Assembly: GCA_002404015.1 (NCBI GenBank) | Contig: DHIW01000070.1 | Coordinates: 1 to 15,931, forward strand | Length of the DNA stretch: 15,931 nucleotides | Direction of reading: 5' to 3' | From: Chloroflexi bacterium UBA4736 | Lineage (GTDB): Bacteria; Chloroflexota; Dormibacteria; Dormibacterales; Dormibacteraceae | Shown: positions 1 to 15,818 of the stretch, in pieces | How positions within the stretch are numbered: the first letter of the stretch is position 1 | Layout of the letters: the number at the start of each line of letters is the position of its first letter | Notes under the pieces: model-generated | The model's database searches: none | Seen by the model: only the letters and a program-made list of their open reading frames with translations | What the model was told of the DNA's origin: nothing | Made by a program: the position numbers and the translations under genes

Positions 1-6
1 TATTTA

Positions 7-50
7 TGGGACGCAGCACTAGTCTCTTCGGGGTAAAGTGGCCGCTATAC
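7..50 (+). repeat. Possible left terminal repeat of an IS1595-type element
   Basis: The stretch contains GGGGTAAAGTGGC (about 30-42) just upstream of the transposase remnant. Some IS1595-family ends have a similar look, which is the only basis for the call. I found no matching inverted copy downstream, so the right end is missing or unrecognised. Confidence 0.22.
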
Positions 51-92
51 GACGACTCCCAATCTGTTGAGTTGTCGGAGAAGGAGGCAGAA

Positions 93-800
93 ATGCCACA
101 TACGGGCGAGAAGTGTCCGACCACAGGGACTTGGCGGGGCGACGACGAGCATAAGGAGGAGATCCACATCTCAGCGACAGAAACCTTCCCGCCATGTCGG
201 GCCTGCCACAGGGCGGTCAACTGGACGCTGGTGCGCGCAATGGGCTTGCTTGAGCGCCACGGAGAGATTCGCGCGAGGGTCGTCCCAAGCGTCCGAAAAG
301 GCACTCTGCAAAAGGAAGTTCGAGCAAGCGTTGCGCCTGGGTCTACGGTCTATACGGACGCGTCTTATTCGTACCGGGGGCTTCACACCGACTATGTCCA
401 CGAGGTCATCGATCACGCGGAATCCTACGTTCGGGACCGCGTTCACACTAACGGCCTTGAAAACTTCTGGTCGCTGTTCAAGCGGATGATCTACGGGACT
501 CATCACTCCGTCGATCCCGAGCACCTTGACCGCTATCTGGACGAGGCTACGTATCGCTTCAACTCGCGCGAGGTGTCGGACACGACGCGGTTTGTCGCCG
601 CAACCGCGCGAGTCATCGGGAAGCGAATCACCTACCGGCAATTGATCGGGAAGGAAGCCCTTGGGCAGTACTACTCCGAAGCCGAATCGGCTCCCTCGTG
701 CCAAGTTCGAGGAGTTCGTGAAACACGTTCTGGCGGTTCCGAAAGCCGAACTAGATGCGCGCCTGAACGAGGGGAAGCGCACGAAGCGCGAACGCATTAG
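93..800 (+). pseudogene. IS1595-type transposase remnant fused to a small Cys protein
   Basis: The ATG at 93 is chosen because AAGGAGG (81-87) lies 5 nt upstream. Residues 1-47 (MPHTGEKCPTTG...PPCRACHRAVNWTLV) look like an independent small protein with Cys8, Cys35 and Cys38, perhaps YjzC-like. From about residue 48 the sequence becomes the C-terminal half of an ISXO2/IS1595 DDE transposase: VYTDA holds the second Asp (D89), HTNGLENFWSLFKR holds the catalytic Glu (E123), and GKRITYRQLIGK is the usual family ending near residue 187. The zinc ribbon and first catalytic Asp (roughly 190 residues) are absent, so it should be inactive. The last 45 residues are low-quality read-through overlapping another frame. 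An internal deletion joining a passenger or upstream gene to the transposase is the simplest explanation. Confidence 0.7.
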
Positions 801-2247: not shown

Positions 2248-3027
2248 TCAGAGCGCCCAGCGGCGCTGCTGGATTGCGGCCACGACCTCACCGGCCGTCA
2301 GGTGGCGCAGATAGCGGTCGGTCGTGGCCAGACTGGCATGGCCAAGCTGGTCCTGAATGAGGTTGACGGGCACGCCTTCCTTGACCAGTTCGGCGGCGTG
2401 GGTGTGCCGCAGAGCATGCGGGTGGACGCGCTTCTCAATGCCCACCTTGAGCGCCAAGCGCCGGAGCAGGGTGCGGACATAGGAGGCGGCCAGGCGACCA
2501 CCGTCCAACGTGCAGAAGAGCGAACCGTTGCGGACGCCGAGGTCGCTGCGGCGATCCAGCCAGCGCTGCACGAGCGCTATTGCGTCCTGGTCGAGCCCGA
2601 CGGTGCGCGATCGGTCGCCCTTGCCGTGTAGTACACGAATGGTGCCCCGGTCAGGGTCGATGTCGGTGGTCTTGAGCGCCAGTGCCTCGCCGACCCGCAG
2701 GCCGGACCTGTAGAGCACGGCGATCAAGGCCCGGTTGCGAATCCCGGTCGGTGCGTTGCTGGAGCAGGCACCGATCAATGCCCGGACCTCGTCGGGGGTC
2801 AGCACCTCGGCTGGGAAGGTCCGATCCTTGCGCGGCGAGGGCTGCCCCGCCCGATAGCCCTTGAGCGTGGCTGGAGAGGGTCGAGTGTTGTTTCTGATAC
2901 GAATCGACACTCTATCAGGCTTCGAGTTTCCAGCCTGAACCGACTTTAGGGCGAGTAGCACTGGATCGGTCGAGTCGCGACTCCCTCTCAAGCCGCGCAG
3001 AAGCTGCTCTCGGAGGTCGTCGGACAT
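2248..3027 (-). CDS. Tyrosine recombinase / XerC-like integrase
   Basis: DNA breaking-rejoining enzyme of the phage integrase family. With the ATG at 3027 it has 259 aa; a TTG at 3102 would add 25 residues. In the longer numbering the full catalytic set is present: Arg136 in SGLRVGEAL, Lys161 in HGKGDRSR, His229 and Arg232 in HPHALRHTHA, His255 in LGHASL and the nucleophile Tyr264 in TDRYLRH. The family linker FPAEVLTPDEV is at 96-106. The region before it does not look like a normal SAM-like core-binding domain and is short, so DNA binding may be altered. I prefer the ATG because a TAGGCT -10 box lies 7 nt upstream, and because the TTG would overlap the divergent promoter of the 77-aa gene. 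It probably mobilised the left part of the element or resolves dimers. Confidence 0.9.
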   Translation of the reverse strand: MSDDLREQLLRGLRGSRDSTDPVLLALKSVQAGNSKPDRVSIRIRNNTRPSPATLKGYRAGQPSPRKDRTFPAEVLTPDEVRALIGACSSNAPTGIRNRALIAVLYRSGLRVGEALALKTTDIDPDRGTIRVLHGKGDRSRTVGLDQDAIALVQRWLDRRSDLGVRNGSLFCTLDGGRLAASYVRTLLRRLALKVGIEKRVHPHALRHTHAAELVKEGVPVNLIQDQLGHASLATTDRYLRHLTAGEVVAAIQQRRWAL

Positions 3028-3034
3028 CGGGGTC

Positions 3035-3040
3035 AGCCTA
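3035..3040 (-). promoter_or_regulatory. -10 box TAGGCT for the tyrosine recombinase (leaderless)
   Basis: On the minus strand TAGGCT is followed by 7 nt and the ATG at 3027. This matches the spacing seen at several other starts in the window and supports that ATG. No good -35 is visible. Confidence 0.45.
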
Positions 3041-3095
3041 ACCCGGGGCAGTTGCTGGGCCAGGCTCCGTGACGGCCTCCAGATCCTACCTTGGT

Positions 3096-3124
3096 TTGAC
3101 AAACTAAGGTTGTCGAACTAACCT
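3096..3124 (+). promoter_or_regulatory. Promoter TTGACA-17-TAACCT for the 77-aa gene
   Basis: A consensus -35 TTGACA (3096-3101) is separated by 17 bp from TAACCT (3119-3124). The GTG start at 3132 follows 7 nt later, so the transcript should be leaderless or nearly so. Confidence 0.65.
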
Positions 3125-3565: not shown

Positions 3566-3805
3566 TCAGGGGATTTGCCCGCGCGCCCGGAGCCAGGCCT
3601 CGGCCTCGGGGACGCTCATCGGCGTGGAGGTGTGCCTGACTCGCTTGGGTCGTGGGGAGTCGGCGGTGTCGACCTTCCTCCGCGCCGAGTTGCGGATGCG
3701 CATGCACTGCCGACAGGTGCCTGAAGGCTGGGATGGCGGTCGGTAGGTGTTGGCGGGCGTCATCTCATGGCCCTGGCCGCAGTGGGTCCTCGGTTTCCGT
3801 TTCAT
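3566..3805 (-). CDS. Small zinc-finger protein, HNH-associated type
   Basis: 79-aa basic protein. Residues 8-34 have the pattern H-C9-G-Q-G-H13 ... C31-R-Q-C34, close to the THCxxGHxxTPxNTY...CRxC module that commonly precedes HNH endonuclease domains in actinophages and also occurs alone in short phage proteins. No HNH catalytic residues follow: the tail is only basic residues and a helix (PEAEAWLRARG). It is therefore a stand-alone zinc-binding, probably nucleic-acid-binding protein, not a nuclease. Its ATG overlaps the stop of the 18-aa ORF by ATGA, and GAGGAG lies just upstream, indicating translational coupling. It is last in the minus-strand series after the primase. Confidence 0.7.
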   Translation of the reverse strand: MKRKPRTHCGQGHEMTPANTYRPPSQPSGTCRQCMRIRNSARRKVDTADSPRPKRVRHTSTPMSVPEAEAWLRARGQIP

Positions 3806-4052: not shown

Positions 4053-6191
4053 TCACTCGGCCACCCCTGGAAGTCCCGGCTCGCGTGGTCCCACGTCCTC
4101 TGTTTCGGTCGGTGTCCAAACCTGCTGGCAGTGGAGACAGCGCCGCTCCGGGAGCCCGTTGGGGCCTGCCGTGTATGCGAGCTGGCCGCAGGCCGGGCAG
4201 GGGATGGAGGGTTCCTGCGGGGTCGCCGAGTCTTCTTGCCGGTAGGGCTTCAGTGAGTGATGGAGCAGGCTGTTGTGAGGCCCCGGCATCACCTCTACGT
4301 AGCCATCGACCACCAGCGCCGCGAGCGCGTCCCGGACGAAGTTCCTCTTGCCCGGGACCTCCTTCTCGACCGCCGCCTTGCTCTGGGGTTCGGCCGCCTC
4401 CTCCAGGAAGCGGGAGACCCTCTCCATGAGGACGGTCGGCCGGAAGACCTCCTTGCCCTCCTCATCGGTCTTGACTCCGGCGGACGGCCGTAGCTCCCAA
4501 TCAATGCTGCCGTCAGGGTGTGACTCCAGGCGAAGCTGGGCGATCTCGGGATTCATCCCCGGGGTAAGCCCGCGCAGGTGCCCGGGGCGGTCTTTGCTGA
4601 GATGGATGCTGGCCAGTCCCGTGCGCCCGACCCCGAAGGGCACGATCAGCTTGAAGCTGAAGCTAGCGCCGTCGATGAGGGCCAGCTTCTGCCCGGCCCC
4701 CACCGCCCACCTACCTTGGGTGTCTGGGTTCTTGGTTACGTGGTCGATCAGGATGGTGGGTCCGCTGGTGGCGACCTGCACCGGCCGCACCAACTCCTCT
4801 TTCCAGGTCAGGACATCGGCGTTGGAGTTGGGCTCGTAGCCGCTGGCGGCGAGGGCGGTGTTCTCGCCGTCCAGGACCGCGATCTCTATGGGATTGGCGG
4901 CCAGCAGGGCGAGCAGGCGGGGCCGGGCCTCTTTCCCCAGGCCCTCTTCGGGCCTGATGTAGAGCAGGCCTTCCAGGATCTGCTCCTGGCTGACTCCCAG
5001 GGCCAGCAGGTGGCCGACCACGTCGCGCGCCTCGGCCTCGAAGTCGAGGTAGAGCGCCCGGCCGCCAGCCATCAGCACCTCTGCGACCGCCACCTGGGCG
5101 GCCCATGACTTCAGAGTCTCGGGCTCGCCGTGGAAGTCGTGGACACGGCCCGGATAGAGCAGCAGCACACCGTCGCCGCGTCGCAGGCGGGTGGGCTCCA
5201 GCGCGCCCAGGTCGCCCGCCAGCAGGGCCTCTAGGTCGACCGGTAGCCAGCTTGGCGACTCCGCCTCCGGGCTCGGCTCCCAATCGGGGACGGCTCGGAT
5301 GATGCCCCGCAGCATGTCCTGCATGTGCTGGTCGGGGTCCTGCTCGAACCAGTCATCCAGCCCGCCGCTGGGAGGTAGCCCCGGCAAGTCCAGCACCGTC
5401 ACTCTGGCGGCGATCCCGTGGCAGTCCCTTGCCACCCGCTGGGTCCTCCGCCTGCCCTTCTCGTCGTTGTCGGCGACGATCACCACCTGGTGGCCCCTGA
5501 ACTCCTCGGCGAACTCCGGCCGCCAGTCGTTGGCGCCGCCCGCCGTGGTCGCTAGCAACCCCTTCTCCCAGAGGTAATCGACAGCTTTCTCGCCCTCCAC
5601 CTCGAAGACCCACCGAGTCAACCCCAGCGTCGCCGCCTGGGCCAGCGCATCCCGCAGCTCGGGCAGCCGGTAGAGCACCGGCCTGATGCCCTCCAGGTTG
5701 GGGATCGACTGTCCCGGGTGTTCGGGGTCGGGCCGCCAGGGGAGAAACCACTTGAGCCGCTGCTCGCCCTCTCCGGTCTCGTAGCGCGCCCGCCGGTAGA
5801 CAAGTTTGCCGTCGGCGTCGTGGTAGTCGTAGGTGTCCTTGATGTGGGGGCGGTTCATCCACCTCATATCCGGCTGTGGCTGAACCTCGCGAGGCTCAAC
5901 CGGCTCCCCTGTTCGATGGGTGACACCGCAGGCGCAGTCGCCGTCGAGCCGGTGGGCGTAGGTGTTCGAGAGGTCATTGAAATCGAGACCGTCCGCGTAC
6001 TCCTCGCGCGTGCAGTGAGCCCACTCGCCGTCGCTGGAGAGGAAGCCCCAGCAGCGGGTGCCCCTGTGCTGGGGAAGCTCTGGGTAGCCGTCACAGACCG
6101 GGCATGGATTGCGGCGCGTGAAGCGCTGCTCAGATTTCACTGGGCCACCGTCTTGTTTGTGGCCGTGAGTAGGTACCTTCACGCCGTCCAC
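4053..6191 (-). CDS. TOPRIM primase / RecA-like helicase-type replication protein
   Basis: 712-aa replication protein of the kind found in actinophages and integrative plasmids. Residues 30-60 hold a zinc motif (C30-x2-C33 ... C47 ... C60). A TOPRIM domain follows at about 190-270, with Glu200 in FEVEGEKAVD and the D241-N-D243 pair in VADNDEKGR. From about 335 a RecA/AAA_25-like ATPase begins; its P-loop position reads GEPETLKSW (355-363), with Leu360 where a Gly is usual. A Walker B-like IAVLDGE surrounds D441, and LIDHVTK...GRWAVGAGQK (481-502) is characteristic of this family. A winged-helix-like region (585-655) and a second zinc ribbon (C665, C668, C685, C688) finish it. GTG at 6191 is used; GTG at 6182 overlaps the stop of a 14-aa ORF by GTGA and is a credible alternative. 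It probably primes and unwinds the element's own DNA. Confidence 0.8.
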   Translation of the reverse strand: MDGVKVPTHGHKQDGGPVKSEQRFTRRNPCPVCDGYPELPQHRGTRCWGFLSSDGEWAHCTREEYADGLDFNDLSNTYAHRLDGDCACGVTHRTGEPVEPREVQPQPDMRWMNRPHIKDTYDYHDADGKLVYRRARYETGEGEQRLKWFLPWRPDPEHPGQSIPNLEGIRPVLYRLPELRDALAQAATLGLTRWVFEVEGEKAVDYLWEKGLLATTAGGANDWRPEFAEEFRGHQVVIVADNDEKGRRRTQRVARDCHGIAARVTVLDLPGLPPSGGLDDWFEQDPDQHMQDMLRGIIRAVPDWEPSPEAESPSWLPVDLEALLAGDLGALEPTRLRRGDGVLLLYPGRVHDFHGEPETLKSWAAQVAVAEVLMAGGRALYLDFEAEARDVVGHLLALGVSQEQILEGLLYIRPEEGLGKEARPRLLALLAANPIEIAVLDGENTALAASGYEPNSNADVLTWKEELVRPVQVATSGPTILIDHVTKNPDTQGRWAVGAGQKLALIDGASFSFKLIVPFGVGRTGLASIHLSKDRPGHLRGLTPGMNPEIAQLRLESHPDGSIDWELRPSAGVKTDEEGKEVFRPTVLMERVSRFLEEAAEPQSKAAVEKEVPGKRNFVRDALAALVVDGYVEVMPGPHNSLLHHSLKPYRQEDSATPQEPSIPCPACGQLAYTAGPNGLPERRCLHCQQVWTPTETEDVGPREPGLPGVAE

Positions 6192-6438: not shown

Positions 6439-6882
6439 TCACGCCCAGACCTCGACCGTGACCTCGCCCTTCCTGACCACGTGCCCGACCGCCTCCCAGT
6501 GTCCGGCCGCGATCGTGAACACATAGCCGCACGGCATCAGGAGCAGCAGGTCACCGTCAGCGACCTCGAACGTAGCCCCCGGGCCGTACGACCGCCAGTC
6601 AGTGCCGGAGAGCATCACCATCAGGTCGCCCGCGACCGGAAGCCGGGGCGGACTCCAGCCCGCGCGGGCCAGCTCGCGATGGTCCAGAGCGCAGGAGGTC
6701 GCGGTCTCCCAGCAGTCGTGCCCGTGTCCGTGACAAAACCAAATCGGGGCGCCGTCGGTTACCAGGAGCGCCTGGAAGTGGGCTCGGCCGAGCGGCCGAA
6801 AACCGGGTTGAGGATCGGGTAGGGAGCGGTCGACCGAAACAGGCTGAGCTGCTCGGACGACTGGTCGAGTAGGCTGGTGCAT
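6439..6882 (-). CDS. Hypothetical 147-aa protein with His/Cys cluster
   Basis: I do not recognise the family. The ATG at 6882 is preceded by GAAGGAAG about 7 nt upstream. The central part has a potential metal-binding cluster: C50-H51-G-H53-G-H55-D-C57, then C64 and H68. The C-terminal half (VAGDLMVMLSGTDW, ATFEVADGDLLLLMPCGYVF) is beta-rich and resembles a small barrel. No signal peptide or membrane segment is evident, although LLLLMPCGYVFTIAAG is hydrophobic. It lies between the HTH/51-aa pair and the structured block upstream of the primase, all on the same strand, so it is probably an accessory protein of the element. An antisense-facing terminator lies just upstream. Confidence 0.6.
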   Translation of the reverse strand: MHQPTRPVVRAAQPVSVDRSLPDPQPGFRPLGRAHFQALLVTDGAPIWFCHGHGHDCWETATSCALDHRELARAGWSPPRLPVAGDLMVMLSGTDWRSYGPGATFEVADGDLLLLMPCGYVFTIAAGHWEAVGHVVRKGEVTVEVWA

Positions 6883-6948: not shown

Positions 6949-7104
6949 TTAGGCCTGGGGCGGCCTGGCCACCGAGCCCAGGAGTCCGGCAACCTTGGCT
7001 AGGACGGCCGGGTCGTAGCATTTGGGCGGCAGTCCTTGGCGACCACGATCAGCCAGCAGGCGCGCGACCGCGCGGGGGTCTGGGGAGGTGGCGGCGGCCT
7101 TCAT
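6949..7104 (-). CDS. Small 51-aa protein, translationally coupled to the HTH gene
   Basis: Begins MKAAATSPDPRAVARLLADR and ends in GLLGSVARPPQA. Its ATG (7104) overlaps the stop codon of the HTH gene (ATGA), a strong sign that both are translated together. The composition is helical: one helix around AVARLLADRG and another around PAVLAKVAGLLG, separated by LPPKCYD. It could be a small DNA-binding or antirepressor-like partner of the HTH protein, but nothing in the sequence identifies it. Confidence 0.55.
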   Translation of the reverse strand: MKAAATSPDPRAVARLLADRGRQGLPPKCYDPAVLAKVAGLLGSVARPPQA

Positions 7105-7367
7105 CGCGCCACCTTGGCTGTGGTCTTGGCCGTGCCCGTAGTCCGGGACTGAGTCGGCCCCTGCTCGATCGCCAATAGCTCGCTCTCGACCAGGGCGAGG
7201 ACGCGCGACGAGATCGCACGACTGCCGCGAATTGCCTTGCTCAACTCACCATCATCGAGTCCACAGCGGCGACAAAATTCGTGTTGCGAGATCTTGTTGA
7301 TGAAGAGCAGGTGGCGAAGGTGGGGGCCATCGAGAAACGCCAGGTTCCGGCTCCTGTTTCGAGACAT
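7101..7367 (-). CDS. Small HTH regulator, Cro/XRE-like
   Basis: 88 aa from the ATG at 7367; a TTG at 7406 would add 13 residues but lies within a hairpin. Residues 15-60 (HLRHLLFINKISQHEF, CRRCGLDDGELSKAIRGSRA) have the pattern of a lambda-repressor/Cro-type helix-turn-helix, with Q28-H-E-F-CRRCGL as the turn region and ELSKAIRG as the likely recognition helix. The C-terminal 25 residues are disordered and basic. AAGGAGG (minus, 7380-7386) is 12 nt from the ATG, longer than ideal, and lies in the 3' arm of a terminator-like hairpin. It is downstream of the integrase gene and overlaps the 51-aa gene. A role as element repressor or excision control protein is inferred from fold and position. 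Confidence 0.65.
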   Translation of the reverse strand: MSRNRSRNLAFLDGPHLRHLLFINKISQHEFCRRCGLDDGELSKAIRGSRAISSRVLALVESELLAIEQGPTQSRTTGTAKTTAKVAR

Positions 7368-7401
7368 AAAAAACGGCGACCTCCTTATGGAAGTCGTCGT
7401 T
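7368..7401 (-). promoter_or_regulatory. Terminator/attenuator hairpin holding the HTH gene's RBS
   Basis: On the minus strand AACGACGACTTCC (7401-7389), loop ATAA, pairs with GGAGGTCGCCGTT (7384-7372): 13 positions with one A/C mismatch and one G-U pair. The stem is followed by T6 (7373-7368) and immediately by the ATG at 7367. It has the form of an intrinsic terminator for transcripts coming from the integrase, and its 3' arm contains the GGAGG expected to serve the HTH gene. Confidence 0.65.
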
Positions 7402-7621
7402 CCCAAATCTCCCGGAACCCGCCCGATCTAAGTCGGGCAAGCCGCTTCAAAAGCACGTTGTCCCCGCCCTTCCAGGCGGGTTGCCGGGGTCATGACACGG
7501 GACTTGGTCCGCGACGCTTGGAGCCGATGCTACAGCATTTCTGGCCTTTTATTTGGCCCAAGGGTGACGCGGTTCCTGATGGCCTCATTAGGAAGACCGC
7601 GACGCGTCAAAAGGGGAGGCG
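7402..7621 (-). other. Spacer between integrase and HTH gene, with two hairpins
   Basis: No gene seen. GCCCGA-TCTAAG-TCGGGC (7421-7438) and CCCGCC-CTTCCA-GGCGGG (7463-7480) are perfect 6-bp stems, so with the terminator-like hairpin there are three stem-loops in about 110 nt. ATGCT-GT-AGCAT (minus strand, around 7530-7541) is a further short inverted repeat. The stretch would be the 3' UTR of the integrase transcript and the leader of the HTH transcript. I see no tRNA-like fold. Confidence 0.45.
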
Positions 7622-9025
7622 CTAGGTCTTCCAGCGAATGCTGATCCGGTCACTGTCGAAGGTGTTGCGGCCTCGCACCCCCGGTCCGATCACGACTGCC
7701 TCCACCAGGGCCGCGATCACGGCTCGCTTGCGGTGAAGCTCTAGGCCGAGCCAGGAGGCCCGCAGGGGGTCGGGCAGGCCATCGAGACGCTGACCACGCC
7801 GGGAGGCCTCCAGGCGGCGGCTGAGGGCGTCCCGGCGGACCATGAGCGCCGCCCGAGCGGCGTCCCACTCCCCCCGGCTGACGCGGTCGGCAGCCCAGTC
7901 CCGAGCCAGGTCAGCGAGCTTCTGCTCGACCCCCGCCAGCCCCTCCATCGCCTCGCGGTCCTCGGTGGTCTCCATGGCCGCCGCCAGCGCACCCCCGTCA
8001 ACCGCAGCCAGGACCGCCTCCGAGACCAGCGCTTCCAGGGGGTCGGCCTGGACACGGATTCCGCCGCAGCCCCTGAATCCGGGTCCCTTGGCGCAAACCA
8101 TGGAGCGGCTGCCGACGCGCGGCCGGGCGACCAGCGGGGCTCCGCAGAGCCCGCACACGGCCAGCCCGGCCGTCAGCAGGTACTTGGTCGAGTGTCCGTT
8201 CATGCGGCGCTCCCCATTCCCCAGCAGGCTGCGCAGGTCGTCTGACTCCTGGGGGCTGATGATGGCAGCCCAGACGGCGGGGGCCACGATGGTGCCGATG
8301 TCGCGCCTCTTGCCGTCGATGGTGCGCCGCTCCCGGCGGCCCGAGATGCGGGCGCTGACCAGCATCCGGCGCATTGTCGGGGCCGACCAGCGGGCATTGT
8401 TGACGGTCCCGATACCCCGCTGATCCCAGTCCCGGCAGAGGCCGCGCAGACTGCCACCAGCCAGGACCCGAGCGGCCGCCTCGCGGACCAGGCCCGCCTC
8501 TGTGGGCCGGACCGCGTGCCGGTCCTCCTCGTAGCCGAAGGGGCGGCCGCCGCCCGCGTCCTTGCCGTCGGTCGCCAGTTCCAGGTGTTTGCGCCGGGTC
8601 CGGCTGCGCATCTTGCGTAGCTCCTCGCGGGCGAAGCTGGCCCTCAAGTCCATCTCGAAGATGCCGGTGCCGGTGGCGAAGTCGGCCTCGCCGCCCAGCC
8701 AGGCGACCTTGATCCGGGCCTTCTCGCAGGCGGTGTAGAACCTCACGTAATCGGTGAGCCCTCGGTTCAGCCGATCCAGGTCGTGGGCCAGGACCAGGCC
8801 CACCTCATGGCGCTCGATGGCCTCGATCAGGCGCTCGTAGTCGGGCCGGTGGACCTTGCCCGAGCCGCTCAGGTCGTTGTCTTCCAGTGAGAGCACGACC
8901 TCGGCCCCTCGGCGCTCGGCCTCCCGCTGGAGGTCTTCCTGCTGGCGGAGAACTCCCAGCCGGGTCTCGTCTTCGTCTCGGGAGATGCGGGTGTAGATCG
9001 CTGCTCGGACCTGATCGGTACTCAT
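7622..9025 (-). CDS. Large serine recombinase (integrase)
   Basis: 467-aa site-specific recombinase that integrates and excises the element. The N-terminal resolvase domain has the nucleophile Ser15 in AAIYTRISRDED and Arg85/Arg88 in AHDLDRLNRG; the long E helix is FEMDLRASFAREELRKMRSR (124-143). The recombinase domain follows (about 160-270, starting GGGRPFGYEED), then the zinc ribbon with C291, C294, C311 and C320. A Glu/Arg/Ala-rich coiled coil lies at about 355-410, and a final strand RNTFDSDRISIRWKT is usual for the family. The ATG at 9025 is 7 nt after a TACAGT -10 box. The reading frame is also open upstream and continuous with the yifB fragment, so the product could be made as a 772-aa fusion from the yifB start at 9940. 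Confidence 0.92.
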   Translation of the reverse strand: MSTDQVRAAIYTRISRDEDETRLGVLRQQEDLQREAERRGAEVVLSLEDNDLSGSGKVHRPDYERLIEAIERHEVGLVLAHDLDRLNRGLTDYVRFYTACEKARIKVAWLGGEADFATGTGIFEMDLRASFAREELRKMRSRTRRKHLELATDGKDAGGGRPFGYEEDRHAVRPTEAGLVREAAARVLAGGSLRGLCRDWDQRGIGTVNNARWSAPTMRRMLVSARISGRRERRTIDGKRRDIGTIVAPAVWAAIISPQESDDLRSLLGNGERRMNGHSTKYLLTAGLAVCGLCGAPLVARPRVGSRSMVCAKGPGFRGCGGIRVQADPLEALVSEAVLAAVDGGALAAAMETTEDREAMEGLAGVEQKLADLARDWAADRVSRGEWDAARAALMVRRDALSRRLEASRRGQRLDGLPDPLRASWLGLELHRKRAVIAALVEAVVIGPGVRGRNTFDSDRISIRWKT

Positions 9026-9058
9026 GTAACAAACTGTAACACTCGACTGGGCTCGGGA
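9026..9058 (-). other. Attachment-site junction (yifB / element)
   Basis: Family members continue after GEIS with a sequence like LAHRGVLFLDEL. Here GEIS (ends at 9056) is followed by RAQSSVTVCY and the integrase start. The minus-strand bases CGAGCCCAG still resemble the expected coding for LAH, so the exchange point is probably within or just after 9045-9058. TGTAACA occurs twice at a 10-bp step (9025-9031 and 9035-9041) on the element side. Confidence 0.55.
9033..9038 (-). promoter_or_regulatory. -10 box TACAGT for the serine integrase (leaderless)
   Basis: Minus strand TACAGT, then TTGTTAC (7 nt), then ATG. The box lies on the element side of the junction, so the integrase would keep its own promoter wherever the element goes. 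No clear -35. Confidence 0.55.
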
Positions 9059-9946
9059 GATCTCGCCGGGGGCGGCCAGGCCGGAGCCGCCGCCGACCAG
9101 GCCGGCCAGCGAGATGGAGTGGTGGGGCGCGCGGAAGGGCCGCCGCCACTCCAGCGGCCGCCGGCCGGCCAGGTCCCCGATCACGCTGCGAACCTCGGCC
9201 ACCTCAAGGGCCTCTTCCAGGGTCAGCGGCGGCAGCAGGCCCGGCAGGCAGCGGGCCATCATCGTCTTGCCTGAGCCGGGCGGCCCGTTCAGCAGGAGGT
9301 GATGGCCGCCCGAGGCGGCGACCTCGAGCGCGCGCCTCGCCTCGGCCTGGCCGTGCACCTCGGCCAGGTCATCGCCGGAGGGCTCGGCTGCGGCCTCCGG
9401 CTCCGGGCGGCTGGATTCGTGCTGATACAGCGGCTCCACGCCCATCAGGTGGCGGACCACCGCCGCCAGGGTGGGTCCGGCCCGGACCCGAATACCGTCC
9501 ACCAGCGCGGCTTCGGCGGCGTCTGCCGGAGGCACGAAGACCTCCTCGAAGCCGTGCGCGCGCAGGGCCCGGACCGCCACCAGGACGCCGTCCACGTGCC
9601 GCACCTCGCCGTCCAGCGCCAGCTCGCCCAGGAAGGCAGCAGCTCGGGGGCCGGCCTGCCCGGCCGCCGCGAGGCTGATCGCCACCCCGATCGCGAGGTC
9701 GAGCGAGGACCCCTCTTTGCGCATCTCGGCAGGTGCCAGGTTCACGGTCAGCCGGCGCTTTGGGAACGCCAGATCGCTGTTTCGGATGGCGGCGCGCACG
9801 CGCTCGCGCGACTCCCGGACGGACGTGGCGGCCAGCCCGACCAGGAAGAAGCCCGGGACCCCGGGCGAGATGTCCACCTGGACCTCGACCGGCCGCCCCT
9901 CGAGCCCGTGCAGGAGGCAGGAGAAGACCGACGTCGGCATGACGCG

Positions 9947-9952
9947 AGGCTA
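9947..9952 (-). promoter_or_regulatory. -10 box TAGCCT for yifB (leaderless)
   Basis: Minus strand TAGCCT, 6 nt (CGCGTC), then the yifB ATG. No Shine-Dalgarno is present. Confidence 0.45.
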
Positions 9953-10017
9953 GCCGGCCGGTCGGGACCCCACAACGGTGCCTGTTAAGACGCTCGGCCA
10001 GTTCGCCGGCCAATGAG

Positions 10018-10860
10018 TCAGGGAGACAGCTGGGGCTCCGGCGTCCAGCGCCCGTCCGAGTCGACGTAGCCCGCCGGCTGGTCGGTCTCGTGCGACAGCA
10101 CCAGCAGCCAGCGGTGGGCGGCGGCCTCCTCCAGCAGCTTCGCCTTCTCGTCGAGAACTCGCAGCACGTCGAGGTCGGCGCTCATGGTCCAGGGAACGCG
10201 CAGGTGCGGCCGCATCCCGACCAGGTCCCCCGTGACGACGCACGACAGCTCGTCGCCCGCCTCGAAGCGCACCACCTGGTGGCCCGGGGTGTGGCCGCCG
10301 GTGCGCCGCACGACCACCCCGGGCAGCACCTCCGCCTCGCCGTCGACGAACTCGACGGCCCCCGCCGCCTCGACTGGCAGAAAGTCGTCCTCCAGGTAGC
10401 CCGAGCGCGAGCGCAGGTCCGGCGCCAGCGCGAAATCCCACTCGGCGCGCTGCACGATGTGCCGGGCCCGCGGGAACGTCAGCTCGACCCGGCCGCCCTC
10501 GCTGCGGCGCGTGAAGCCGCCCGCGTGGTCCCAGTGGAGGTGCGTGCTGAGGACCACGTCCACCTCCTCGGGCCGCACCGACAGGCGCTTCAGGCAGGTC
10601 AGCAGGCCGTCCGGCTCCCACACCCCGTACTGGCGCGCCCGCTTCTCGTCGAGCTTGGACCCGATCCCCGTCTCGCACACCAGAACGCGGCCGTTGTGGC
10701 GGACGACCACACCCACGCAGGCTGCCCGCACCAGGTTGTTCTCGTCAGCCGGCTTCTGGCGCTCCCAGAGCTTCTTGGGGACGACTCCGAACATGGTGCC
10801 GCCGTCGGGGTGCCAGCCGCCGGCCACGAGCAGGTGGATCTCGAAGTCGCCGAGGCGCAT
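10018..10860 (-). CDS. Metallo-beta-lactamase-fold hydrolase
   Basis: 280-aa cytosolic metal-dependent hydrolase. The signature STHLHWDHAGG (HxHxDH, 107-112) binds the two-metal centre. Further expected ligands are His190 in GGHTPGHQ, Asp212 in VVTGDLVG and His257 in LSHETD. Length and motif spacing fit the lactonase-like branch of the superfamily, such as quorum-quenching N-acyl homoserine lactonases, but many members are uncharacterised and the substrate cannot be read from sequence. There is no signal peptide. It starts 8 nt after a TACGCT -10 box and is divergent from the exporter operon, so the two may share control through the operator at 10908-10923. Confidence 0.85.
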   Translation of the reverse strand: MRLGDFEIHLLVAGGWHPDGGTMFGVVPKKLWERQKPADENNLVRAACVGVVVRHNGRVLVCETGIGSKLDEKRARQYGVWEPDGLLTCLKRLSVRPEEVDVVLSTHLHWDHAGGFTRRSEGGRVELTFPRARHIVQRAEWDFALAPDLRSRSGYLEDDFLPVEAAGAVEFVDGEAEVLPGVVVRRTGGHTPGHQVVRFEAGDELSCVVTGDLVGMRPHLRVPWTMSADLDVLRVLDEKAKLLEEAAAHRWLLVLSHETDQPAGYVDSDGRWTPEPQLSP

Positions 10861-13928: not shown

Positions 13929-14765
13929 ATGCCGAGATCAATGTGGAAAGGCGTCATCAGCTTCGGAATGGTCTCCATCCCTGTGCGCCTGTACGTCGCC
14001 ACGGAGTCTCATTCCGTCACCTTCCGGCAGCTCTGCTCCGAGCACATGTCGCCGATCAAGTACAAGCGCTGGTGCCAGGCCGGCGACCACGAGGTCCAGT
14101 TCGGCGAGATAGTCAAGGGCTACGAGGTCTCGGACGACCGCTACGTGGTCATCGAGGAGCACGACCTGGAGAACCTTCCACTCCCCACCTCGCGAGCCAT
14201 CGAGATCTCGGAGTTCATCCCCCAGGACGACATCCAGGCCGGCCTCTACTTCAAGTCGGCGTACTACGTCGAGCCCGAGGAAGCGGGGCGCAAGCCCTAC
14301 CACCTGCTCAAGAAGGCGCTGGAGGAGACCGGCAAGGTGGCCGTCGCAAAGATCGCCCTGCGCGACCGCGAGCACCTCTGCGCGCTCCAGCCGGCCGACG
14401 GGCTGATGCTGATGAACACGCTCCACTGGCCTGACGAGATCCGCTCCACCGAGGGCCTGAAGGGGCTCGACGGCGACGTGAAGGTCAACCCCAAGGAGCT
14501 GCAGATGGCCATGTCGCTGGTGGAGAGCCTGGCCGAGGAAACATTCGACCCCTCGCGTTACCAGGACGACTACCACGACGCTCTGATGAAGGTCGTCAAC
14601 GCCAAGGTCGAGGGCGAGGAGATCGTCGCCGCGCCCGAGCCGGAGGCCGCGCCCAAGGTGATGGACCTAATGGAGGCCCTGAAGGCGTCCGTCGAGGCCG
14701 CCAAGAAGCAGCGGGCCGACAAGGCGCCGGCCAAGAAGCCGGCCGCGCGGAGAAAGGCCAGCTAG
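13929..14765 (+). CDS. ku: Non-homologous end-joining protein Ku
   Basis: 278-aa bacterial Ku, which forms a homodimeric ring on double-strand DNA ends and recruits the ligase. The start MPRSMWKGVISFGMVSIPVR is the classic Ku N-terminus, followed by FRQLCSEHMSPIKYKRWC, VIVKGYEVSDDRYVVIEEHD-type sequence (EIVKGYEVSDDRYVVIEEHD) and HLCALQPADGLMLMNTLHWP. The C-terminus (AKKQRADKAPAKKPAARRK) is the short Lys/Ala-rich tail found in many Ku proteins and thought to help DNA binding or sliding. The length is normal. It is followed 21 bp later by the ligase gene, which has its own -10 box. Confidence 0.95.
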   Translation: MPRSMWKGVISFGMVSIPVRLYVATESHSVTFRQLCSEHMSPIKYKRWCQAGDHEVQFGEIVKGYEVSDDRYVVIEEHDLENLPLPTSRAIEISEFIPQDDIQAGLYFKSAYYVEPEEAGRKPYHLLKKALEETGKVAVAKIALRDREHLCALQPADGLMLMNTLHWPDEIRSTEGLKGLDGDVKVNPKELQMAMSLVESLAEETFDPSRYQDDYHDALMKVVNAKVEGEEIVAAPEPEAAPKVMDLMEALKASVEAAKKQRADKAPAKKPAARRKAS

Positions 14766-14773
14766 CGGCCCGT

Positions 14774-14779
14774 TAGCCT
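14774..14779 (+). promoter_or_regulatory. -10 box TAGCCT for the ligase gene
   Basis: TAGCCT is followed by 7 nt and the GTG at 14787. Those 7 nt are AGGAGGC, so the start could serve either a leaderless mRNA or ribosomes on a read-through ku transcript. Confidence 0.45.
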
Positions 14780-14786
14780 AGGAGGC

Positions 14787-15818
14787 GTGCAGAACGCCGA
14801 CCAGCTTCTGTTCGAGCTGGACGCCTTCCCGCCCGCCGTCCGCCCGATGCAGGCGGTTTCCGCCGAGGCCCCGTTCTCAGCCGAGGACTACCTGTTCGAG
14901 GTCAAGTGGGACGGCCTGCGCGGCCTCCTGTTCGTCGATGCCGAGGGCGGCGTGCGCCTGCAGGACCGCGGCCTGAAGGACATCACCGACCTGCTGCCCG
15001 AGATGGCCTCGCTGGGTTCCCAGATCACCCATCCGGCGGTGCTGGACGGCGAGCTGGTCGCGACCGACGAGGAGGGACGGCCCGACTACCACGCTCTCCG
15101 CCGGCGCCTGCTGGGCGGCGCGGCGCTGGCCGAGGAGGTGCCGCTGGCGTTCCTGGCCTTCGATGCGCTCTACCTGGACGGGCGCTCCCTGCTCCGCCAG
15201 CCGCTGACGCGCCGGAAGGCCCGGCTCCGCAAGGCGGTGACCAGCGGCGGCCACCTCTTCGTGCCCGACCACATAGAAAAGGAAGGGGTGGAGCTCTTCG
15301 AGGCCTGCCTGGAGCGCGGCCTGGAGGGCGTCATGGCCAAGCACGGCGAGAGCACCTACGTGCCCGGCCAGCGCAGCCCGTTCTGGCTGAAGGTGAAGGC
15401 GGTCAAGAGCGACGACTTCGTCGTGACCGGTTGGACGCCCGGCCGGCCCTTCGGCGCGCTGCTTGTCGGCTACTACGAGCGCGGCCACCTGCTGCCCTGC
15501 GGCTCGGTGGTAGGGGGCTACGAGCCGGAGGTCGCCGAGGCGATGGCGCGCGAGCTGGAGGATCTGGAGACGGAGCTCAGCCCGCTCGAGCCGCCGCCCA
15601 TCATGACCGCCCCGGTGCGGTGGTGCCGGCCCGAGCTGGTGATCAGCGTCCGCTACTCGGAGTGGTCGCCCGACGGCACCCTGCGCTTCCCGATCTTCAA
15701 CGGCCTGCGCCCAGAGGTCCACCCCGCCGAGTGCGTGCGCCACCGGCCGCGGGTCGTCATCGGCGGCCGGGTCGCGCCCGGCTCACCGATCTTCGACCTC
15801 ACGCGCTTCCCGTTCTAG
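14787..15818 (+). CDS. ligD: ATP-dependent DNA ligase, LigD ligase-domain type
   Basis: 343-aa ligase that seals DNA ends, most likely with Ku. Nucleotidyltransferase motifs are in order: motif I EVKWDGLR with catalytic Lys40, DGEL at 87-90, AFDALYLDG at 124-132, EGVMAK at 180-185 and WLKVK at 200-204. The OB-fold domain follows from about 207 (DDFVVTGWTPG ... LRFPIFNGLRPEVHP). The polymerase and phosphoesterase domains of full LigD are absent here, so those activities would need separate genes. The GTG start is supported by TAGCCT and AGGAGG immediately upstream. The gene ends one base before an apparent IS end but appears intact. LigC is the alternative name for stand-alone ligases of this kind. 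Confidence 0.9.
   Translation: MQNADQLLFELDAFPPAVRPMQAVSAEAPFSAEDYLFEVKWDGLRGLLFVDAEGGVRLQDRGLKDITDLLPEMASLGSQITHPAVLDGELVATDEEGRPDYHALRRRLLGGAALAEEVPLAFLAFDALYLDGRSLLRQPLTRRKARLRKAVTSGGHLFVPDHIEKEGVELFEACLERGLEGVMAKHGESTYVPGQRSPFWLKVKAVKSDDFVVTGWTPGRPFGALLVGYYERGHLLPCGSVVGGYEPEVAEAMARELEDLETELSPLEPPPIMTAPVRWCRPELVISVRYSEWSPDGTLRFPIFNGLRPEVHPAECVRHRPRVVIGGRVAPGSPIFDLTRFPF

What the first reader, a model, noticed from the sequence alone, without database searches (positions are those of the whole stretch)
9026..9940. Serine integrase inserted in yifB/comM, producing an in-frame fusion
Seen: family similarity of YifB ends at PGEIS (residue 295), and the same frame runs without a stop into a 467-aa serine recombinase, giving one 772-codon ORF. 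Known: ComM/YifB helps branch migration in natural transformation and is a target of other islands. Inference: the element uses a site inside the AAA+ domain, removes Walker B, and leaves the integrase behind both its own -10 box and the yifB promoter, so host transcription could also drive it. Gene splitting that reverses on excision could act as a switch for DNA uptake.
Basis: partly seen in the sequence, partly recalled or inferred. Interest (0 to 1): 0.7.

Follow-up and report, generated by a model that had tools for sequence, protein, structure and literature searches.

The report
Serine integrase fused in-frame to yifB
A mobile element has cut into a bacterial DNA-recombination gene (yifB/comM) so precisely that its own integrase gene continues the host gene's reading frame; the gene is a well-known landing place, but the same exact fusion is repeated in other, distantly related elements.

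Summary
One 772-codon minus-strand ORF (7622-9940) joins YifB residues 1-298 to a complete large serine recombinase (LSR) starting at 9025. The cut lies before Walker B, and no yifB 3' half was found in the window. It is not a one-off. Of 347 proteins listed by three database searches, ten (the window's included) carry the same fusion: GE[IVL]S, exactly ten residues, then the integrase start. Their integrases are 33-85% identical. An eleventh integrase, P0004, sits at the same codon in the opposite orientation: its long N-terminus is antisense to the yifB 3' half. I infer that the crossover is a CA in codon 298, and that the integrase start codon lies about 22 nt beyond it, at the end of the attP half-site. 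The in-frame join is then most simply a by-product of attachment-site geometry. yifB and the integrase both have leaderless-type -10 boxes. LSR integration into this gene is known (12.4% of predicted site-specific LSRs, PMC10083194). The recurrent in-frame geometry was not found in the papers searched. A reversible DNA-uptake switch is untested.

The parts
7622..9940 (-). 772-codon fused ORF, YifB(1-298) + arm + large serine recombinase
9047..9940 (-). yifB/comM 5' part: Lon-like (ChlI) domain and first part of the AAA+ domain with Walker A, cut before Walker B
9023..9074 (-). inferred host-element junction (attL-type): host arm 9050-9074, putative core CA 9048-9049, element arm 9026-9047 (22 nt), integrase ATG 9023-9025
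   Evidence: the limits are inferred, not tested
7622..9025 (-). large serine recombinase (integrase), 467 aa
9033..9038 (-). leaderless-type -10 (TACAGT, 7 nt before the integrase ATG), inside the element arm
9947..9952 (-). leaderless-type -10 (TAGCCT, 6 nt before the yifB ATG)
7101..7406 (-). small ORF, 101 aa, probably a helix-turn-helix regulator (by eye; no Pfam, PHROGs or NCBIfam match)
6439..6882 (-). ORF of 147 aa, no family match
4053..6191 (-). 712-aa TOPRIM/primase-ATPase protein like phage DNA primases
3566..3805 (-). 79-aa ORF matching phage HNH endonuclease families in part
2248..3102 (-). tyrosine recombinase (XerC/XerD/integron-integrase-like), presumably inside the element

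Best explanation
A mobile element of at least about 9 kb, carrying a large serine recombinase and a phage-type primase, integrated site-specifically into yifB/comM. The crossover is most likely at a CA dinucleotide in codon 298, just before the Walker B codons. The element's attP ends at the integrase start codon, about 22 nt from that core, so recombination in the sense orientation always leaves the integrase 33 nt beyond the GE(I/V/L)S codons and in frame with yifB. Shown by sequence: the fused ORF, the loss of the second half of the AAA+ domain at this end, and nine further fused proteins with the same geometry. Inferred: the core dinucleotide, inactivation of YifB, transcription from both a leaderless promoter in the element arm and the yifB promoter, and hence possible production of both a 467-aa integrase and a 772-aa fusion. 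The frame match is most simply a by-product of where attB and attP lie, not an evolved device.
For: Fused ORF and domains. Ten fused proteins among 347 listed, with identical spacing of ten residues (10 of 10), integrases 33-85% and yifB parts (nine of them) 44-80% identical. P0004: antisense yifB from residue 298 to the end, 206 positions without a gap, score 148.8 against a maximum of 10.4 in 100 shuffles, fixes the other side of the same site and shows the reversed orientation. Codon 298 is Gln in 3 of 10 fusions and in 0 of 214 intact YifB, so its third base comes from the element. Core to ATG is 22 nt in the window and about 21 nt in P0004, against a 25-bp attP half-site in the A118-family integrase (PMC3783163, passages read). 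Of 14 gene starts checked, 5 have TANNNT 5-9 nt upstream, yifB and the integrase among them, against 0.8% of all positions. P0121's yifB part is 89.6% identical to an intact YifB, as expected for a recent insertion.
Against: The second junction and the yifB 3' half were not seen for the window or any sense fusion. The other nine fusions are known as proteins only, so their arm length in nucleotides and any shared core are inferred. The fusions were found because they are in frame; insertions in other frames would have escaped the protein searches. The TANNNT box is not readable in the same place in every fused relative: judged from residues it is excluded at that place in three of ten (P0121, P0232, P0233; own reading). 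One of the five boxed starts (the ligase) has an AGGAGG in the spacer, so it need not be leaderless.
Confidence: 0.75

Rival explanations
1. The in-frame join is selected and functional. Ribosomes translating yifB run on into the integrase and make a YifB-integrase fusion, or at least avoid early stops and polarity, so that integrase supply and excision follow the host's yifB expression.
For: Identical frame and spacing in 10 of 10 fused proteins with integrases down to 33% identity. In the window, a shift of one or two bases at the junction would bring a stop 7 or 79 codons later. No Shine-Dalgarno-like sequence stands before the integrase ATG. The one reversed member has an arm one nucleotide different.
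Against: The ten were found because they are in frame, so the frame is not an independent result. Fixed attB and attP lengths explain it. P0004 shows that the clade also integrates the other way round. In a model of P0121 (nine sequences, mean pLDDT 70.6, pTM 0.38) most of the truncated AAA part, 182-307, has pLDDT under 50, which suggests a floppy remnant and no new working domain.
Confidence: 0.15
2. The fusion is a domesticated chimeric gene kept by the host, not a live insertion.
For: No yifB 3' half in the window; fused genes in at least two kinds of host.
Against: The integrases keep the full LSR domain set and the YxRIS motif. The yifB part of P0121 is 89.6% identical to an intact YifB. 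Fused proteins are scattered in the integrase tree among relatives not known to be fused, unlike one inherited gene.
Confidence: 0.06
3. Assembly chimera.
For: The window has no held genome, and an IS1595-type transposase lies at its left edge.
Against: The same protein is listed on six contigs. The same junction is found in nine other fused proteins, one on a 646-kb contig.
Confidence: 0.02

Closest known systems
LSRs that target the magnesium chelatase / ATP-dependent protease gene (PMC10083194; passages read)
   Same: Same target gene family; 12.4% of predicted site-specific LSRs; competence genes enriched among targets.
   Different: The passages that I read give no insertion codon, orientation or reading frame; the codon-298 in-frame join is not mentioned in them.
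Wolbachia phage WO sr1WO serine recombinase (PMC9203015, PMC5447182; passages read)
   Same: A serine recombinase integrates into the magnesium chelatase gene and leaves a part on each side; the gene remnant lies next to the recombinase.
   Different: Wolbachia phages, one family; no in-frame fusion described in the passages read. I did not compare the sequences.
MGEs that disrupt comM in Proteobacteria, such as Aggregatibacter, Acinetobacter and Mannheimia (PMC4774983, PMC11472951; passages read)
   Same: comM inactivated by insertion at conserved places; proposed benefit of avoiding removal by transformation.
   Different: Other integrases or Tn7-like elements; no fusion of the integrase to comM in the passages read.
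Other yifB insertions seen here in one other phylum and in viral contigs (L031, L040, L042, L059, L075)
   Same: LSR beside a broken yifB.
   Different: Breaks near residue 350, 277, 303 or 103 of P0166; in all five the integrase is on the strand opposite to yifB, so a sense fusion is impossible.

Membership tests
Large serine recombinase (phage-type serine integrase) | Resolvase catalytic domain with YxRxS, then Recombinase and zinc-ribbon domains | tested here: met
   PF00239, PF07508, PF13408 above cut-offs; PHROG integrase family; Tyr, Arg, Ile and Ser of YTRIS invariant in 29 aligned integrases
Large serine recombinase (phage-type serine integrase) | Recombines attP with attB without host factors | not testable with these tools
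   needs an assay
YifB/ComM family | Lon-like domain plus complete AAA+ with Walker A and Walker B, and C-terminal domain | tested here: not met
   only the 5' part: TIGR00368 positions 1-298 of 499, 293 bits against a cut-off of 362; Walker A present, Walker B and the rest absent
Site-specific integration into yifB at one conserved codon | Same junction in independent elements | tested here: met
   10 fused proteins with the same spacing; P0004 at the same codon in reverse
Site-specific integration into yifB at one conserved codon | Both junctions and the yifB 3' half flank the element | tested here: inconclusive
   3' half not in the window; seen only for the reversed member P0004, as antisense
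Prophage or integrative element | Replication, transfer or virion genes besides the integrase | tested here: inconclusive
   primase-like and HNH-like genes; no virion or transfer gene recognised among the window ORFs that I tested; the element's far end is outside the window
Reversible gene-splitting switch (active lysogeny, as recalled for Listeria comK) | Regulated excision that restores the host gene | not testable with these tools
   no reads or strains

The most novel reading that the evidence does not exclude
A family of serine-integrase elements has fixed its attP against the integrase start so that insertion into yifB makes a translated YifB-integrase fusion. The recombination gene's own promoter and ribosomes then supply the integrase and couple excision of the element to the host's recombination or competence programme.
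Probability: 0.15. Interest if true: 0.68.

Novelty: new variant of a known kind. Interest (0 to 1): 0.42.

Why it matters
yifB/comM is one of the commonest targets of serine integrases, and why is open. Here is a set of integrases whose attachment geometry ties the start codon to the host reading frame at a single codon, in at least two kinds of host (Dormibacterota-like and Actinomycetota). It gives a defined attB that can be tested directly. It also explains some odd database proteins: YifB-recombinase fusions named as ATPases or invertases, and an integrase with a long antisense-yifB N-terminus. If the fusion is translated, an element would be borrowing a host gene's expression for its own integrase.

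Tried and rejected
yifB 3' half in the window: none by motif or by tblastn with two intact YifB. Own genome: none held. Viral contigs with the window integrase alone: no relative; with integrase alignments: 20 and 32 loci. I inspected the in-frame upstream stretch for 20 of 20 and 30 of 32; none continues a yifB 5' half. tblastn of two YifB on all 52 found yifB pieces only in L059 and L075, both 3' pieces on the strand opposite to the integrase. Viral contigs with YifB alignments: none and two loci; L083 matches YifB over its whole length, L084 matches residues 1-72 only, and neither shows an LSR. Degenerate junction pattern in viral contigs: 0. The genome-contig scan gave one weak, unrelated locus.

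A DNA-level census of frames at this site failed, because only the phylum of that locus's genome could be reached. Of 398 genomes, 351 had a YifB match. I re-searched 55 of them, picked for two or more matches or a weak best match, and fetched 16 regions. In nine of the 16 a yifB 5' part ends at residues 349-356 without continuing (four of these nine at contig ends). LSR-like hits occur in 3 of 16, all on the strand opposite to yifB. No yifB 5' part in the 16 ends at the GEIS site. One genome with a match ending at residue 298 (G315) stops there at a contig end.

His/Gln at codon 298 as a target preference: weak, since His is there in 180 of 214 intact YifB (214 of 218 rows fitted the pattern, and at least two of the other four are integrases). 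Repeats flanking the element: among the 20 direct-repeat families shown of at least 60, none flanks it. Defence families: only a weak primase match in one of six proteins. In the integrase tree I left out P0019, P0031, P0037 and P0230 (incomplete) and most of P0066-P0120. Searches in named phages and plasmids found only distant integrases (best full-length hits 27% and 31% identity). Paper searches for yifB integrase sites or integrase-target fusions found nothing relevant (listings only); the library lacks most subscription journals.

Full report
What is there. On the minus strand one ORF of 772 codons (7622-9940) begins as YifB/ComM and ends as a large serine recombinase. YifB similarity stops at about residue 301 of the ORF (profile position 298 of 499 for TIGR00368), and the resolvase, recombinase and zinc-ribbon domains follow. 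Ser295 of PGEIS is at 9056-9058 and the integrase Met306 at 9023-9025. The AAA+ part keeps Walker A and loses everything from Walker B on. A yifB 3' half was found in the window neither by motifs nor by tblastn at E up to 1, so the element is at least about 9 kb and its far end lies outside. The same protein is listed on six contigs, the longest 16,208 bases.

It recurs. Three protein searches listed 347 different proteins (120 shown each time, of 427, 7999 and 7995 matches). Ten of them, the window's included, join YifB to a serine recombinase at the same place: P0001 (the window), P0005, P0023 (annotated from inside yifB), P0121 (named ATP-binding protein of an Actinomycetota MAG, on a 646-kb contig), P0231, P0232, P0233, P0234, P0235 and P0238. 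In ten of ten, exactly ten residues separate GE(I/V/L)S from the integrase start, which is Met in nine and Leu in P0121 (perhaps an alternative start codon). Nine of ten have Cys two residues before the start. Integrase identities run from 33 to 85%; the yifB parts of the nine longer ones run from 44 to 80%. P0121's yifB part is 89.6% identical to an intact YifB, so that insertion is probably recent; the window's is 68.8% identical to its nearest listed intact relative. Intact relatives of the window's yifB with a source name include Candidatus Nephthysia bennettiae and Candidatus Dormibacteraeota, so the host is probably of that phylum (inference).

The same site the other way round. P0004, about 59% identical to the window's integrase, has a long N-terminal extension. 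Its residues 3-208 fit the antisense strand of yifB from residue 298 to the C-terminus without a gap: score 148.8 against P0166, with a maximum of 10.4 in 100 shuffles. So this element sits at the same codon, reversed, with the integrase start next to the yifB 3' half. Codon 298 is His in seven and Gln in three of the ten fusions, while Gln occurs in 0 of 214 intact YifB, so the third base comes from the element in at least these three. P0004 keeps a His codon there on the 3' side. The bases common to both products are CA, read as TG from the other strand; I take this as the crossover dinucleotide (inference). That sites can pair either way round and that only the parallel alignment of the central dinucleotide recombines well is stated in PMC3783163 (passages read), which cites the Bxb1 and polarity-switch work.

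Why it is in frame. From the core to the integrase ATG there are 22 nt in the window, the same number of residues in the other nine fusions, and about 21 nt in P0004 (if its start is Met216). The A118-family integrase contacts a 25-bp attP half-site (PMC3783163), so the start codon lies at the very end of attP. A fixed attB position and a fixed arm length give a fixed frame. Selection for the fusion is not needed, and the ten cases were found because they are in frame. For the window, dropping one or two bases at the junction would give a stop 7 or 79 codons later; the naive chance of the right frame is one in three. In the integrase tree of 75 rows the fused proteins are scattered among relatives not known to be fused; the surroundings of those relatives are unknown.

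Expression. A strict -35/-10 scan of 8900-10100 finds nothing. But 5 of 14 checked gene starts (yifB, the integrase, the metallo-beta-lactamase-like gene, ORF 3132 and the ligase) have TANNNT 5-9 nt upstream, against 0.8% of all positions, a layout known from leaderless genes (recalled). The ligase also has an AGGAGG in its spacer, so four are clean. The integrase's box lies inside the 22-nt element arm, and no Shine-Dalgarno-like sequence precedes its ATG. In three of the other nine fused proteins the residues exclude such a box at the same place (P0121, P0232, P0233; own reading). Both a 467-aa and a 772-aa product are possible; neither is shown. A predicted structure of P0121 (nine sequences, mean pLDDT 70.6, pTM 0.38) has a confident N-terminal domain, pLDDT under 50 over most of 182-307, and a better-predicted recombinase; it is only suggestive.

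The element. Leftward follow small ORFs, a 712-aa phage-primase-like protein (best named relative: Microcystis phage MinS1, 37% over 54%), a partial HNH match, a tyrosine recombinase and, at the window edge, an IS1595-type transposase. Its kind (prophage, satellite or other integrative element) is open. The integrase has only distant relatives in named phages and plasmids.

What is known. In PMC10083194 (passages read) homologues of the magnesium chelatase/ATP-dependent protease gene are the target of 12.4% of predicted site-specific LSRs, and competence genes are enriched. Most Wolbachia sr1WO recombinases integrate into the same gene (PMC9203015, passages read; see also PMC5447182). MGEs of other kinds disrupt comM, with escape from removal by transformation as the proposed benefit (PMC4774983, PMC11472951; passages read). 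In the one phylum that I could reach, yifB breaks in the 16 fetched regions cluster near residue 350, and the three LSRs found beside breaks lie on the opposite strand. Viral contigs L059 and L075 show two further break points, again with the integrase on the opposite strand. So the landing gene is ordinary; the codon-298 site with a fixed in-frame join is the new part. Four paper searches for such sites or fusions found nothing relevant.

Verdict. Real, recurrent and specific. The likeliest reading is a particular attachment geometry within a known kind of integration. A host-driven integrase fusion is possible but unsupported beyond the conserved frame; the DNA-uptake switch is untested.

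Noticed in passing
protein P0004: A 688-aa database protein is an integrase whose N-terminal 200 residues are the antisense translation of the yifB 3' half, so it is probably a mis-extended gene call next to a reversed insertion.
   Followed up: yes
L031, L032, L034, L036, L042 and other regions: In another phylum yifB is often broken at the NPCPCG codons (residue about 350), with the two parts tens of kilobases apart in several genomes.
   Followed up: partly
L059:1-203, L075:2462-3778, L084:1450-1689: Viral contigs with further yifB break points (about residues 303, 103 and 72); in the first two an LSR faces away from the 3' piece.
   Followed up: partly
window starts at 9940, 9025, 10860, 3132, 14787: TANNNT 5-9 nt upstream of 5 of 14 checked gene starts against a 0.8% background, suggesting common leaderless transcripts in this host.
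   Followed up: partly
window 2248-3102: A tyrosine recombinase of the XerC/XerD/integron-integrase kind lies in the same element as the serine integrase.
   Followed up: no
window 6-800: IS1595-type transposase at the window's left edge, possibly where the assembly breaks.
   Followed up: no
window 13929-15818: Adjacent Ku and end-joining DNA ligase genes in the host flank.
   Followed up: no
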